A stretch of 64,000 nt of DNA. It comes from an uncultured Bacteroidales bacterium (GTDB lineage: Bacteria; Bacteroidota; Bacteroidia; Bacteroidales; Muribaculaceae). The number at the start of each line of letters is the position of its first letter. The stretch's first letter is position 1. Below the pieces are notes generated by a model. The model did not search any database, was not told where the DNA came from, and worked only from the letters and a program-made list of their open reading frames with translations. The position numbers and the translations under genes are program-made. The stretch lies in contig CACYAW010000010.1 in assembly GCA_902772455.1 (NCBI GenBank), positions 32,951-96,950 of the forward strand, given 5' to 3'. This document shows, one piece after another, positions 58,210 to 63,869 of the stretch.

Positions 58210-59775
58210 ATGTTTAAAAACCATCCCAAGGGTCTAATCCCTGCCGCCTTGAGTAACATGGGCGAGCGCTTCGGCTACTACATCATGGCAGCCGTGCTGT
58301 CGCTGTTCCTGTGCTCGAAATTCGGTCTAGCCGATGACAAAGCGGCCCTGATTTACTCAATTTTCCTGGCTGCCATCTACATTCTGAGCCTCGTGGGCGG
58401 TATCATTGCCGACCGCACCCAGAACTACAAGGGCACCATCATGACGGGTATCATCATCATGGCACTCGGCTATGCCGCCCTGGCCATCCCCATCACCGCC
58501 ACCTCAGGCACGATGACCATGCTGCTCGTGCTCACCTGCGTGGCACTGGTGATGATCGCCTTCGGTAACGGTCTGTTCAAGGGCAACCTGCAGGCCATCG
58601 TGGGACAGATGTATGATGACATGGAGGCCGATGCCGCCGCCGCTGGCAAATCCGAAGAGGAACTCAAGGCCATGAAGGGCCGCCGCGACGCCGGTTTCCA
58701 GATTTTCTATGTCTTCATCAACATCGGTGGCTTGCTGGCTCCGTTCATTGCACCCTTCCTGCGCAAGTGGTGGCTGGGCCGTCACGGCTTCACCTATGTA
58801 GCCGAGCTGCCAGCCCTGTGCCACAAGTACATCGACGGCACCATCCCTAGCGACCAGATGGCCAACCTACAGACCTACCTCACCCAGGCAGGCGTGAACG
58901 GTGGCGCTTCTCCCGAAGCATGCCAGAGCTATCTCGAGGTGTTCAACCAGGGTGTTCACTTTGCCTTCATCGCATCGGTTATCGCCATGCTGATTTCGCT
59001 GAGCATCTTTATCGCCAAGCGCGGCCTCTTCCCCACTCCCGGCAAGAAGACTGCTGCTGCTTCGGTTGAGCTGACTCCCGAGGAGAAGAGATCCATGGCC
59101 AAGGAGCTCAGACAGCGTCTGTATGCCCTGTTTGCAGTGCTCGGCGTTGTGATCTTCTTCTGGTTCTCGTTCCACCAGAACGGCGTGACACTGTCGTTCT
59201 TCGCACGCGACTTCGTCAAGAGTGACCAGCTGCCCGCCGAGTTGTGGCAAGCCGTTAACCCGTTCTTCGTGATCGTGCTCACCCCGATCATCATGCTGAT
59301 CTTCGGTGCCCTGAGCAAACGCGGCAAGGAAATCTCCACCCCGCGCAAGATCGCTTACGGTATGTGCATCGCCGGTATGGCTTATCTGTTCCTGGCTATT
59401 TACTCTTACACCGCCGGTTATCCCTCGGGTGATGAGTTCAAGCTGCTCGATGCCGACACCAAGATGGGCATGAAGGCCGGCTGGTGGGTAATGATTGTTA
59501 CCTACTTCCTGCTGACCGTCGCTGAGCTGTTCATCTCGCCGCTGGGTCTGTCGTTCGTGTCCAAGGTGGCTCCCAAGACCATGCTCGGTCTGTGCCAGGG
59601 TCTGTGGCTGGGTACTACGGCTGTCGGCAACATGCTGCTGCCCATCGGTACCATCATGTACAACAAGATTCCGTTGTGGCAGTGCTGGGGCGTGTTCATC
59701 GTTGTCTGCCTGATTTCGATGGCCGTCATGCTCGCCATGGTTAAGTGGCTCGAGCGTGTCACCAGCGACAAGTAA
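58210..59775 (+). CDS. POT family proton-coupled peptide transporter, copy 1
   Basis: The 521-residue MFS protein should import di- and tripeptides with protons. It has the POT-type opening NMGERFGYYIMAAVLSLFL, where the first Glu of the usual ExxER motif is replaced by Asn, and LFKGNLQAIVGQMYDD in the first half. A cytoplasmic insertion of about 80 residues lies in the middle (EADAAAAGKSEEELKAM and a second part EEKRSMAKELRQRL), and 12 to 14 membrane helices can be counted. FWFSFHQNGVTLSFFARDFV begins the second half. It works logically with the secreted C10 proteases and PepT in peptide use. Confidence 0.92.
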   Translation: MFKNHPKGLIPAALSNMGERFGYYIMAAVLSLFLCSKFGLADDKAALIYSIFLAAIYILSLVGGIIADRTQNYKGTIMTGIIIMALGYAALAIPITATSGTMTMLLVLTCVALVMIAFGNGLFKGNLQAIVGQMYDDMEADAAAAGKSEEELKAMKGRRDAGFQIFYVFINIGGLLAPFIAPFLRKWWLGRHGFTYVAELPALCHKYIDGTIPSDQMANLQTYLTQAGVNGGASPEACQSYLEVFNQGVHFAFIASVIAMLISLSIFIAKRGLFPTPGKKTAAASVELTPEEKRSMAKELRQRLYALFAVLGVVIFFWFSFHQNGVTLSFFARDFVKSDQLPAELWQAVNPFFVIVLTPIIMLIFGALSKRGKEISTPRKIAYGMCIAGMAYLFLAIYSYTAGYPSGDEFKLLDADTKMGMKAGWWVMIVTYFLLTVAELFISPLGLSFVSKVAPKTMLGLCQGLWLGTTAVGNMLLPIGTIMYNKIPLWQCWGVFIVVCLISMAVMLAMVKWLERVTSDK

Positions 59776-59872: not shown

Positions 59873-61414
59873 ATGTTTGAAGGACAACCTAAAGGACTAT
59901 TCGCGTTGGCATTGGCCAACACGGGCGAGCGCTTTGGCTACTACACCATGATTGCCGTGTTCGCCCTCTTCCTCAGGGCCAACTATGGTTTGTCGCCAGC
60001 CGTTGCAGGCACCATCTACAGTTCGTTCCTGATGGTAGTGTATTTCCTCCCGTTGATTGGCGGTTGGATGGCCGATAAATTCGGTTTTGGCAAGATGGTG
60101 ACCATCGGTATCATCATCATGTTCCTGGGCTATCTGCTCTTGGCCGTTCCTCTGGGCGGCAACACGTTTGCTCTGATCGTGATGATTGGCGCGCTATTGC
60201 TCATTGGCCTGGGTACAGGCCTTTTCAAGGGCAACCTGCAGGTGATGGTGGGCAATCTGTATGATGACACCCGCTATGCCGCTAAGCGTGACTCTGGCTT
60301 CTCGATTTTCTACATGGCCATCAACATCGGTGCCCTGTTCGCACCGACAGCAGCTGTCAAGATCAAGGAGTATGCCGAGACCGTATGGGGCTTCTCGTCC
60401 AACGACGCATACCACTTCTCCTTTGCTGTGGCATGTGTTTCGCTGGTGCTCTCGATTGCCATTTACTATGCCTTCCGCAGCACGTTCCGTCACTGCGAGG
60501 GTGGCAAGAAGGATGCCGTCAAGGATGAAGCCAACAACATCAAAGAGCCCGAATTGAGCAAAGAGGACACTAAAGCACGTATCATCGCCTTGTGCCTTGT
60601 ATTTGCTGTGGTCGTTTTCTTCTGGATGGCATTCCACCAGAACGGTCTATCACTGACCTTCTTCGCTGACGAGTTCACCGCCAACACGTCGAGCGGCCTG
60701 GAAAGCATGGCCTTTGACGTATGGAATCTGGTATTGATCATCTTTATCGTTTATGCCGGATTCTCGTTGTTCCAGAGCAAGACCGCCAAGGCCAAGGGCA
60801 TCTCGGGCGCCATTATCCTGGCCGCATTGGGCATCCTGTACTACAAGTACACCCGCACCACTGGCAGCATCGACATCGCTGCTCCGATTTTCCAGCAGTT
60901 CAACCCCTTCTATGTGGTGGCCTTGACACCAGTATCGATGGCCATCTTCAGCTGGTTGGCCAGCAAAGGCAAGGAGCCGTCGGCACCACGCAAGATCGCT
61001 TATGGTATGGTTGTTGCCGCCATCGCTTATGCCATCATGGCGTTTGCCTCGGTAGGTCTGCCCATGCCCGAACAGGTTCAGGATGCCAGTGGCAACCTCG
61101 TCGGCAAGCATGTGGCTGACGTGACGCCCAACCTGCTCATCAGCGTCTATCTTGTGCTGACCTTCGGTGAGCTGTTGCTCTCGCCCATGGGCATCTCGTT
61201 CGTCAGCAAGGTGGCTCCTCCCAAGTATAAGGGAGCGATGATGGGTGGTTGGTTTGTATCGACCGCACTGGGCAACCAGCTGGTACTTGTGGGTGGCGCC
61301 CTGTGGGGCAAGGTACCCTTGTGGGTATGCTGGTGCGTGTTCCTGGGCGTCTGTCTCGTCGCCGCCATCTTCATGTTCGCCATGATGAAGCGCCTCGAGA
61401 AAGTCGCGAAGTAA
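59873..61414 (+). CDS. POT family proton-coupled peptide transporter, copy 2
   Basis: The 513-residue paralogue follows copy 1 by 97 nt in the same direction. It shares NTGERFGYYTMIAVFALFLR, LFKGNLQVMVGNLYDD, SIFYMAINIGALFAP, FWMAFHQNGLSLTFFADEF, and the late SPMGISFVSKVAPPKYKGAMMGGWF segment. Its first half is shorter than in copy 1, and a low-complexity charged loop (EGGKKDAVKDEANNIKEPEL) separates the halves. Two such transporters in tandem probably differ in peptide preference. A REP-type inverted pair lies directly downstream. Confidence 0.92.
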   Translation: MFEGQPKGLFALALANTGERFGYYTMIAVFALFLRANYGLSPAVAGTIYSSFLMVVYFLPLIGGWMADKFGFGKMVTIGIIIMFLGYLLLAVPLGGNTFALIVMIGALLLIGLGTGLFKGNLQVMVGNLYDDTRYAAKRDSGFSIFYMAINIGALFAPTAAVKIKEYAETVWGFSSNDAYHFSFAVACVSLVLSIAIYYAFRSTFRHCEGGKKDAVKDEANNIKEPELSKEDTKARIIALCLVFAVVVFFWMAFHQNGLSLTFFADEFTANTSSGLESMAFDVWNLVLIIFIVYAGFSLFQSKTAKAKGISGAIILAALGILYYKYTRTTGSIDIAAPIFQQFNPFYVVALTPVSMAIFSWLASKGKEPSAPRKIAYGMVVAAIAYAIMAFASVGLPMPEQVQDASGNLVGKHVADVTPNLLISVYLVLTFGELLLSPMGISFVSKVAPPKYKGAMMGGWFVSTALGNQLVLVGGALWGKVPLWVCWCVFLGVCLVAAIFMFAMMKRLEKVAK

Positions 61415-61423
61415 TAAACCATA

Positions 61424-61506
61424 AGCGAGCCAAAGGCTCGCAATACCTCAACGGCCTGAACGACCGGGACGGAACCGTCGGGGTATTGCGAGCCTCTGGC
61501 TCGCTT
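61424..61506. repeat. Pair of REP-type palindromes in inverted orientation
   Basis: GCGAGCC-AAA-GGCTCGC (61425-61441) followed by AATACC, then after a 40-nt loop GGTATT followed by GCGAGCC-TCT-GGCTCGC (61488-61504). Each is a 7-bp palindrome with a 3-nt loop, and the two are mirror images, as in REP/BIME elements. A third copy lies after the next gene (62493-62509). Confidence 0.85.
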
Positions 61507-61521
61507 TATTATTGACAAGAA

Positions 61522-62484
61522 ATGGACGACAAGCGCAACGAGGGGCGCAAGCAATGGTCACGGAACCATCCCAACGTGGATGCCACTCCGTCGATGAAGC
61601 GACGGATGGTTGAGCATGACTATTATGGCCGTGGCATCTACTTGATCACCTTGTGCGTTGATAAGCGTGTGCCGCGGTTAGGAACCCTATGCGGGCCCGA
61701 CAGCAGCCATCCTCAGCCGTGGGTGAACCTGTCGCCGCTGGGCGAGAGCGTGAGGAACGAGTGGTTGGGCATTCCCCGCTACTATCCTCAAATCAAAGTG
61801 CTGGCTCTTACCGTAATGCCCGACAACTTGCACGGCATCCTGTTTGTCGCTGAGCCATTGCCTGTGCATCTGGGCAAAGTCATCACTGGCTTCAAGGTTG
61901 GCTGCAACAGGGCAGTCAGGGAGTTGGGGCAACCCGTGCCTTTATGGGAACCCGGCTACACCGATGGCGTGCTTCGGGGCAAAAGCCAACTTGACCGCTG
62001 GAAAGCCTACATTAACGATAACCCTCGCCGCCTGTGGATAAAACGACAGCATCACGAGTTCTTCACTGTCTCCCATCATCTCACGATTGCAGGCGCCGCA
62101 GTAACCGCGATGGGCAACCATCAGCTTTTGCAGTACCCATCCATATTGCAGGTTTACTGTTCACGACGCTTGAATGATGAAGAAATAGCGCGCGAAGGGG
62201 ACAGGCTGCTCTGTCAAGGAGCCGTTCTTGTTTCTCCCGCCATCAGCCCAGGCGAGAAAGCCATCATGAACAGGGCACTCGAGGCGGGAGTCCCCATCAT
62301 CCTCATCACTGACAACGGCTTCTCAGAGATGTCAAAGCCCGGCGGAAAGCTATTCGATGCCTGTGCAGCAGGCAAGGTATTGCTAATCTCCAAGAATGCA
62401 CACCACAACGACTACCAGCCACTAACCCAAGAGCGATGCCGTGAGATGAACGCCCTGGCACGGGCAATCGCCTTACAGCCGTGA
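61522..62484 (+). CDS. Y1-transposase-like (RAYT-type) domain fused to a SLOG/DprA-like domain
   Basis: The 320-residue protein has two parts. Residues about 30-175 resemble the Y1 (IS200-type) domain of REP-associated tyrosine transposases: YGRGIYLITLCVDKRV, ALTVMPDNLHGILFV, WEPGYTDGVLRGKSQLDRWK and YINDNPRRLW. The HUH histidine pair is degenerate (Asn102-Leu-His104), with Tyr146 in the GYTD segment as a candidate nucleophile. Residues about 196-316 (CSRRLNDEEIAREGD, VSPAISPGEKAIMNRALEAG, IILITDNGF) look like a Rossmann-type SLOG/DprA-like nucleotide-binding domain; this is pattern-based. REP-type palindromes flank the gene on both sides. Catalytic status and role are not known. Confidence 0.7.
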   Translation: MDDKRNEGRKQWSRNHPNVDATPSMKRRMVEHDYYGRGIYLITLCVDKRVPRLGTLCGPDSSHPQPWVNLSPLGESVRNEWLGIPRYYPQIKVLALTVMPDNLHGILFVAEPLPVHLGKVITGFKVGCNRAVRELGQPVPLWEPGYTDGVLRGKSQLDRWKAYINDNPRRLWIKRQHHEFFTVSHHLTIAGAAVTAMGNHQLLQYPSILQVYCSRRLNDEEIAREGDRLLCQGAVLVSPAISPGEKAIMNRALEAGVPIILITDNGFSEMSKPGGKLFDACAAGKVLLISKNAHHNDYQPLTQERCREMNALARAIALQP

Positions 62485-62492
62485 CTGCGACA

Positions 62493-62509
62493 GCGAGCCT
62501 AAGGCTCGC
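62493..62509. repeat. REP-type palindrome downstream of the RAYT-like gene
   Basis: GCGAGCC-TAA-GGCTCGC followed by AATAC, in the same orientation as the copy at 61425-61441. It begins 9 nt past the stop. Confidence 0.85.
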
Positions 62510-62545
62510 AATACTCTGACAAAGAAGCTGAGAAAGAGCCGTGCA

Positions 62546-62648: not shown

Positions 62649-63869
62649 ATGACTAAATTAGTTGACCGATTTTTGAAGTATGTGAAGTTTGACACCCAGA
62701 GTGATGAACTCACGAACCTGACACCCTCTACCCCAGGTCAGATGGTGTTTGCCAAGGAACTGGAAAAAGAACTGCACGACATGGGCCTGAGCGACATCTC
62801 GCTCGATGATAACGGCTATCTGTTTGCCACCCTTCCCGCCAACACCGACAAGGCTGTTCCCACCATCGGCTTCATCGCCCACATGGACACGGCGCCCGAC
62901 ATGAGCGGCCACGACGTGAAGCCACGCATCGTGAAGTATGAGGGAGCACCCATCGTCTTGAGCGAAGAGGCCAACATCGTGCTCGACCCGGCACAATTCC
63001 CCGAGATGAACGACTATGTCGGCCAGGAGTTCATCGTCACCAGTGGCGACACCCTGCTTGGCGCTGACGACAAGGCCGGTATCGCCGAGATCCTGAGCGC
63101 TGTCGAGTGGCTGCAGGAGCATCCCGAGGTAAAGCACGGCAACATCCGCGTGGGCTTCAACCCCGACGAGGAAATCGGCTTGGGCGCACACCACTTTGAC
63201 GTGGAGAAGTTCGGCTGCGACTGGGCTTACACGATGGACGGCGGTGCCGTGGGCGAGCTGGAGTATGAGAACTTCAACGCTGCCAGTGCCAAGATCACCT
63301 TCAAGGGCCTGAACGTGCATCCCGGAGCCGCCAAGCACAAGATGCTGAACTCGATGCGCGTTGCCTTGCAGTTTGCCACCATGCTGCCTCGCTGGGAGAC
63401 CCCCGAGCACACCGAGGGCTATGAGGGCTTCTATCACCTCATCAGCATGCAGGGCAGTGTAGAGCTGACCACGTTGAGCTACATCATCCGCGACCATGAC
63501 CGTGACCGCTTCGAGAGCCGCAAGCGCGAAATCGAGCACCTGTGCCGCAAAATCAACTGCGAGTTCCCCGACTGCGCCACCTGTGAGATCAAGGACCAGT
63601 ACTACAACATGCGCGAGAAGATCGAGCCGGTGATGAACATTATCGACATCGCCAAGCAGGCTATGGAGAATGCCGGCGTCACGCCCAAGGTGCAACCCAT
63701 CCGTGGCGGCACTGACGGTGCTCAGTTGTCGTTCAAGAACCTGCCCTGCCCCAACATCTTTGCAGGCGGTATGAACATGCACGGCCGCTTCGAATATGTG
63801 CCCATCCCCTCGATGGAAAAAGCGATGCAGACCATCATCGAAATCTGCAAGCTTGTGGCTGAAGCGTAA
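62649..63869 (+). CDS. pepT: Tripeptide aminopeptidase PepT
   Basis: PepT (M20B family) releases N-terminal residues from tripeptides in the cytosol with two zinc ions. The 406-residue protein has the expected ligands and catalytic residues: His78 and Asp80 (AHMDT), Asp140 (LLGADDKAG), Glu174/Glu175 (PDEEIG), Asp197 (TMDGG), and a late His in [10 protein letters not shown]. Length and motif positions match the characterised enzyme almost exactly. It acts downstream of the POT transporters that bring in small peptides. Its -7 element is at 62597-62604. Confidence 0.96.

What the first reader, a model, noticed from the sequence alone, without database searches (positions are those of the whole stretch)
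61424..62509. REP-flanked RAYT-like protein fused to a SLOG/DprA-like domain
Seen: three copies of GCGAGCC-nnn-GGCTCGC-AATAC around one gene, two as an inverted pair upstream and one downstream. The N-terminal half has the Y1-transposase layout but with the first HUH His replaced by Asn; the C-terminal half looks like a nucleotide- or DNA-binding Rossmann domain as in DprA/SLOG proteins. Known: RAYTs are domesticated transposases tied to REP palindromes. Inference: this may be a variant that senses a nucleotide or binds ssDNA and spreads or uses REPs, possibly in DNA uptake or defence.
Basis: partly seen in the sequence, partly recalled or inferred. Interest (0 to 1): 0.75.

Follow-up and report, generated by a model that had tools for sequence, protein, structure and literature searches.

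The report
DprA-fused REP transposase with its REPINs
This gene is one of a widespread group of domesticated DNA-cutting enzymes of rumen and gut Bacteroidales, joined to a second domain shaped like a single-strand-DNA-binding protein and flanked by short palindromic DNA repeats that evolve together with it.

Summary
The ORF at 61522-62484 (320 aa) is flanked by three perfect palindromes, two of them a mirrored pair that folds as one long hairpin (a REPIN). An AlphaFold2 model (pLDDT 92) splits into a REP-associated tyrosine transposase (RAYT) core and a DprA-like Rossmann domain. The family matches in 82 of 101 genus genomes (78 at E 1e-70 or better) and in 14 of 30 sampled genera of its family; the 21 matching genomes elsewhere in a 395-genome phylum sample showed the RAYT half only. 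The missing HUH histidine is peculiar to this copy (1 of 72), and the catalytic-type tyrosine is Y163, not Y146. Palindrome type follows the protein clade. REPINs on the two sides of a gene resemble each other more than those of other genomes do, though not in the window itself. At the same site, 9 of 30 loci keep a lone REPIN without the gene, like a solo LTR. Best reading: a new variant of a known kind, a RAYT-REPIN system with an added DprA-fold domain that I infer handles the single strand. Uptake or defence roles are untested.

The parts
61424..61505 (.). Upstream REPIN: two REPs in mirror orientation with a short spacer
   Evidence: ssDNA fold z -9.2 over 61422-61508
61425..61446 (+). 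REP 1: GCGAGCC-AAA-GGCTCGC plus AATAC tail
61483..61504 (-). REP 2, inverted: GTATT-GCGAGCC-TCT-GGCTCGC on the + strand
61522..62484 (+). RAYT-DprA fusion gene, 320 aa
   Evidence: NCBIfam REP_Tyr_transpos E 2.2e-6, 27.6 bits, below its cut-off of 80
61579..62052 (+). Codons 20-177: HUH/Tyr (Y1) nuclease domain
61825..61827 (+). Codon 102, first HUH position: Asn here, His in 71 of 72 members
62008..62010 (+). Codon 163: invariant catalytic-type Tyr (YI-DNP motif)
   Evidence: 72 of 72; that this is the catalytic Tyr is recalled from E. coli TnpA-REP
62065..62478 (+). Codons 182-319: DprA-like Rossmann (SLOG-type) domain
62493..62514 (+). Downstream REP; in 8 of the 18 orthologs read an inverted REP follows a forward one here, in the window none does

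Best explanation
The gene encodes a RAYT, a domesticated Y1 HUH transposase, of a Bacteroidales clade that carries a C-terminal DprA-fold domain. The N-domain is inferred to bind the REP hairpin in single-stranded DNA and to cut and rejoin next to it with its HUH metal site and Tyr163, copying or moving REPINs at a low rate. The DprA-fold domain is inferred to hold, protect or dimerise on the exposed single strand, as DprA does. Shown by computation: architecture, conservation, clade-linked palindromes, REPIN-like mirrored pairs, average within-genome homogenisation of the flanking REPINs, purifying selection, and lone REPINs left at the same site where the gene is absent. Inferred: cleavage, ssDNA binding, and any host benefit. 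REPINs at this site run into T-rich DNA just after the transporter gene, so they may be kept as transcription terminators. This particular copy, with Asn at position 102, is probably impaired in cutting.
For: NCBIfam RAYT model hits 72 of 72 members at E 0.1 or better, best 1.3e-14. Both halves match solved folds. HUH second His, Tyr163, Asn167 and Pro168 are 72 of 72. Of 144 flank pieces of 200 bp, 63 hold a typed palindrome, against 0 of 130 pieces 900-1100 bp away; where both sides are typed (19 loci) they agree in 19. Palindrome type changes 9 times on the protein tree against at least 19 in 500 label shuffles (6 against at least 20 with ties resolved by hand) for 44 typed loci of 72. REP loops match between the two flanks of a genome 0.53 of the time against 0.17 permuted, p 5e-5 (15 of 18 loci); spacer similarity 40.7 against 18.6, p 5e-5 (10 of 18 loci). 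Median dN/dS 0.11, 0.12 and 0.11 for whole, N-half and C-half. Of 30 transporter sites read: RAYT 11, lone REPIN 9, single REP 4, neither 6. All 18 genomes with the ortholog have the exact REP, against 18 of 83 without; counting only palindromes away from the RAYT, 9 of the 13 ortholog genomes fully listed (Fisher p 0.001).
Against: The 5' tag is GTATT, not the GTAG of described REPs. REPs are few: 12 further near-matches in the own genome and 0-8 exact copies per genus genome. In the window itself the loops (AAA, AGA; downstream TAA) and spacers of the two flanks do not match, and only 6 of 10 spacers score best against their own genome. Synonymous distances are near saturation (median dS 1.26), so dN/dS is rough. 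RAYT and transporter distances do not correlate (Mantel r 0.10, p 0.13, n 17) and RAYT presence changes at least 11 times on the transporter tree of 36 genomes, so simple vertical descent is not shown. 28 of 72 loci, L075 among them, had no palindrome of the seven types. Sequence similarity to DprA alone is marginal: PF02481 in 3 of 72, best 0.029; PDB profile E 0.022. In the DprA motif G-S/T/A-R the Gly is Cys in 69 of 72.
Confidence: 0.78

Rival explanations
1. An IS200/IS605-like selfish insertion sequence whose hairpins are its ends and which moves itself as a unit.
For: Y1 fold; hairpins on both sides; presence and absence at one site, with 6 of 30 sites holding neither gene nor REP; scattered presence on the transporter tree.
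Against: No recent copies in the own genome: the five family members are 42-60% identical to each other in every pair that aligned. The 18 orthologs sit after the same transporter gene: it was found beside 17, and the 18th (L012, the same gene as L111) ends its upstream flank in it. 13 of 19 sites without the gene still hold a REPIN or a REP.
Confidence: 0.1
2. The system is now only a REPIN/terminator arrangement: the protein no longer recombines DNA but binds REP hairpins as a regulator of its own or the transporter transcript, with the DprA-like domain as a dimeriser.
For: The inverted upstream REP begins 38-43 nt before the start codon in all 16 of 18 loci where it was found; T-rich sequence follows the REPINs (by eye); this copy lacks a HUH His.
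Against: HUH and Tyr are kept in 71 of 72 members; REPs are found away from the RAYT; flanking REPINs are homogenised on average.
Confidence: 0.1
3. A defence or DNA-uptake device in which the DprA/ShosA-like half senses foreign ssDNA or a nucleotide and the HUH half acts on it.
For: Nearest solved fold of the C-half is ShosA (its role in a phage-defence pair is recalled). PADLOC's PsyrA model hits 2 of 36 C-halves, best 1.3e-4.
Against: No defence gene is the immediate neighbour in the window. The other PADLOC hits are weaker (best 0.0022) and to unrelated models, each in 1 or 2 of 36.
Confidence: 0.07

Closest known systems
RAYT / TnpA-REP (E. coli TnpA-REP, PDB 4er8; Quentin 2018 class 2, with Bertels's groups)
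   Same: HUH plus Tyr in Y-x-x-x-N-P, W-E motif in most members, hairpin repeats on both sides, repeat type linked to the clade, low copy number
   Different: 320 aa with a DprA-fold C-domain; GTATT or other tags in place of GTAG; few dispersed REPs. Subclass 2.6, the Bacteroidetes one, has a median of 179 aa
REPINs (PMC8049555, passages)
   Same: Two inverted REPs with a variable spacer that fold into one hairpin
   Different: Low numbers, many of them flanking the RAYT; lone REPIN left at the RAYT site
TIRYT / subclass 2.1
   Same: RAYT-like core with a C-terminal extra domain and flanking inverted repeats
   Different: Published C-domains are HTH or DnaA_C-like, not Rossmann
DprA and ShosA (SLOG Rossmann fold)
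   Different: Fused to a Y1 nuclease; Cys in place of the motif-1 Gly; motif 2 not clearly present

Membership tests
RAYT / TnpA-REP | HUH motif and single catalytic Tyr with N-P after it | tested here: met
   Family: H102 71/72, H104 72/72, Y163 N167 P168 72/72; the window copy itself lacks H102
RAYT / TnpA-REP | Fold of TnpA-REP | tested here: met
RAYT / TnpA-REP | Gene flanked by cognate REPs, also found elsewhere in the genome | tested here: met
   Flanks. Elsewhere: 12 near-matches, no exact ones, in the own genome; exact ones in other genus genomes
RAYT / TnpA-REP | GTAG tetranucleotide 5' of the palindrome | tested here: not met
   Tag is GTATT in the window's clade. GTAG is described for groups 2 and 3, 'atypical' structures for Bacteroidetes subclass 2.6, so I take it as not defining for all RAYTs
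RAYT / TnpA-REP | ssREP cleavage | not testable with these tools
   needs biochemistry
IS200/IS605 insertion sequence | Near-identical multiple copies that move as a unit | tested here: not met
   Own genome: five members, 42-60% identical in the pairs that aligned; other genomes were not tested for this
DprA (PF02481) | DprA Rossmann fold | tested here: met
DprA (PF02481) | Score above the Pfam/NCBIfam cut-off | tested here: not met
   PF02481 3/72, best E 0.029; TIGR00732 1/72, 0.056; none for the window protein
DprA (PF02481) | Motif 1 G-S/T/A-R | tested here: not met
   C-S-R: C 69/72, S 66/72 (T 3), R 70/72; aligned to G-T-R of H. pylori DprA
DprA (PF02481) | Motif 2 F/L/Y-x-x-R-N/D | tested here: inconclusive
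   Last helix has R303 in 59/72 and N310 in 72/72, in other spacing; no residue-level structural alignment was available
TIRYT / subclass 2.1 | HTH or DnaA_C C-terminal domain | tested here: not met
   C-half is Rossmann; no such Pfam hit at E 0.1 in 72 members
ShosTA defence pair | Toxin partner next to the DprA-like gene | tested here: inconclusive
   Window neighbours are POT and pepT; neighbours of the other family clades were not surveyed

The most novel reading that the evidence does not exclude
A new mechanistic class of RAYT in which a DprA-type domain takes hold of the single strand freed at REP hairpins and hands it to a recombinase, so that REPINs are copied and homogenised by strand exchange rather than by plain cut-and-join. 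The repeats would be kept because they serve the host, for example as transporter terminators, and would leave solo REPINs when the gene is lost.
Probability: 0.2. Interest if true: 0.85.

Novelty: new variant of a known kind. Interest (0 to 1): 0.62.

Why it matters
RAYTs are domesticated transposases whose host function is an open question (PMC8049555, passages). A large clade under purifying selection that added a DprA-fold domain gives a concrete handle: it suggests that handling of ssDNA is part of what the protein does. The genus offers natural sites with the gene, with a lone REPIN and with neither, which makes loss and retention of RAYT and REPIN directly testable.

Tried and rejected
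Rejected: Asn102 as a feature of the variant (1 of 72); Tyr146 as catalytic; general decay of this copy (2 deviations at the 72 columns conserved in at least 90% of rows, the same as the median of 2); simple vertical co-inheritance with the transporter (Mantel p 0.13); pepT as a fixed neighbour (about 8 kb away in G015 and G069). No viral relative in BFVD (no match at E 1e-3 or better). The window holds no further GCGAGCC-nnn-GGCTCGC palindrome with up to 2 mismatches.

Paper searches. One search found 0 papers holding both RAYT and DprA as whole words; in the other listings, of which I saw only the rows shown, I recognised none on a DprA-fused RAYT. The library is open-access only, without a bioRxiv collection.

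Limits: A2 holds 72 sequences: the window, 2 of the 4 paralogs, and 69 of the 80 loci (80 kept of 483 confirmed). I left out L032, L033, L037, L038, L042, L044, L049, L055, L063, L076 and L078 as broken, redundant or odd. Loci L151-L180 are the 30 given of 74 genomes with a transporter hit; their RAYT / lone REPIN / single REP / neither states were judged by eye. Palindrome types were defined after looking at these flanks, and types A, C and E overlap in a few loci. In one search a REP had to show at least 6 of 7 pairs and one of five tails. In a set chosen by the AATAC tail alone, 402 of 448 stem positions pair, against at most 383 in 2000 shuffles. L112 carries a one-codon length change that was not realigned, which inflates its dN and the maxima. 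The 'away from RAYT' count (24 palindromes in 13 genomes) leaves out 5 of the 18 ortholog genomes because the listing was cut; its numbers were typed by hand. Searches scored at most 5 and 7 candidates per genome, and their match lists are capped or cut. The names POT, pepT and hpt-like rest on recall, not on a family search.

Full report
What is there. The window lies in a 3.15-Mb, 163-contig assembly. A 320-codon gene at 61522-62484 follows a POT-type transporter gene (59873-61414) and precedes pepT (62649-63869) (these two names are recalled). Three perfect GCGAGCC-nnn-GGCTCGC palindromes flank it, two as a mirrored pair upstream and one downstream; 0.26 are expected with 2 mismatches allowed. 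The upstream pair folds as one hairpin, z -9.2, and so fits the definition of a REPIN (PMC8049555, passages).

Conservation. The HUH His pair, Tyr163 and N-P are nearly invariant; the window is the only one of 72 with Asn at position 102. This copy deviates from conserved columns no more than the median. The Asn is thus a lesion or variant of this copy, or an assembly error, and probably impairs metal-dependent cutting. Median pairwise dN/dS among 18 orthologs is about 0.11 in each half, with synonymous sites near saturation.

Distribution. At E 1e-10 the family matches 82 of 101 genus genomes, with up to 9 matches in one; 78 of the 82 have a match at 1e-70 or better. At 1e-60 it matches 107 of 297 family genomes, in 14 of 30 genera; the listed rows, which are cut, show matches through both halves for 11 of the 14. 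In 395 genomes of the phylum, 22 matched at 1e-20 with at most 5 candidates scored per genome. Apart from the window's own genome, the 26 listed matches reach at most profile position 191 of 327; 25 lie in frames of 167-225 aa, as plain RAYTs do, and one (G266) in a longer frame with a stop. Named carriers among the 80 loci are mainly MAGs from rumen and other animal-gut sources labelled Muribaculaceae, Prevotellaceae, Bacteroidaceae, Porphyromonadaceae or Bacteroidales, plus Prevotella communis E15-14.

Repeats track the protein. Across the 72 loci, seven palindrome types were defined from the flanks, and 44 loci could be typed. 63 of 144 flank pieces hold one, against 0 of 130 pieces about 1 kb away, and the two sides agree in 19 of 19 loci typed on both. 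Type follows the protein tree far better than shuffled labels. In the orthologs, REP loops and spacers match on average between the two flanks of one genome and not across genomes; the window itself is an exception, and 6 of 10 spacers score best against their own genome. REPs also occur elsewhere: 12 near-matches in the own genome, control 0, and 100 exact palindromes in 36 of 101 genus genomes, control 0, 71 of them in the 18 genomes with the ortholog.

The site with and without the gene. Downstream of the same transporter gene, 30 loci were read (of 74 genomes with a hit): 11 have REPIN and RAYT, 9 a lone REPIN, 4 a single REP, 6 neither (by eye; G084 rechecked). In G054 and G029 the single REP is followed by sequence like that after the window's own downstream REP, which has no partner. 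This is what recombination between the two flanking direct-repeat REPINs would leave, like a solo LTR. Gain of REPIN plus gene beside an older REP would look the same. The transporter tree mixes the states (at least 11 changes), and RAYT and transporter distances do not correlate. So gain, loss and local recombination cannot be told apart, and common descent at this site rests on shared position alone.

How it probably works. For other RAYTs it is established (PMC8266576, passages) that the protein recognises a single-stranded REP and cuts near it, and that HUH enzymes form a 5'-phosphotyrosine link. I infer the same here, with clade-specific recognition and a DprA-like domain that holds the freed strand or dimerises. 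REPINs at this site run into T-rich DNA after the transporter gene, and 5 of the 6 sites with neither gene nor REP show a terminator-like hairpin there instead (by eye); a terminator role could explain why REPINs stay after the gene is gone. That is inference.

Against what is known. Quentin 2018 (PMC6006769: abstract, outline, passages, sections 11 and 20) names no subclass with a Rossmann or DprA-like C-domain in what I saw; its supplements were not seen. The Bacteroidetes subclass 2.6 has a median of 179 aa. PMC3733652 (passages) describes REPtrons and TIRtrons. The searches listed under Tried and rejected turned up no account of a DprA-fused RAYT. I therefore score it a new variant of a known kind.

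After comparing the report with the calls I qualified the distribution counts, added the results against homogenisation in the window, added the sites with no REP as support for the IS rival, and measured the paralogs against each other. The odds of the best reading went from 0.80 to 0.78 and of the IS rival from 0.08 to 0.10 for the empty sites.

Noticed in passing
L002:1501-2442 (G000:C136) and L005:1501-1863 (G000:C126): Two further paralogs in the own genome look broken: one has an internal stop, the other matches only an N-terminal part. Their palindromes differ from those of the window copy.
   Followed up: partly
L004:321-443 and L004:1487-1609: A paralog is flanked by 123-nt direct repeats, 96% identical, on both sides of the gene.
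   Followed up: no
L050 upstream flank; L032 downstream flank: Tandem head-to-tail arrays of REP-type units beside the gene, suggesting local amplification.
   Followed up: no
L154, L156, L163, L165, L173, downstream of the transporter gene: Sites without any REP carry terminator-like hairpins, by eye, where others have a REPIN.
   Followed up: partly
window 58210-59775 and 59873-61414: Two POT-type transporter genes in tandem (name recalled). Genus relatives fall into two main classes of the second one's C-terminal part, about 84-98% and about 65-76% identical, hinting at recombination.
   Followed up: no
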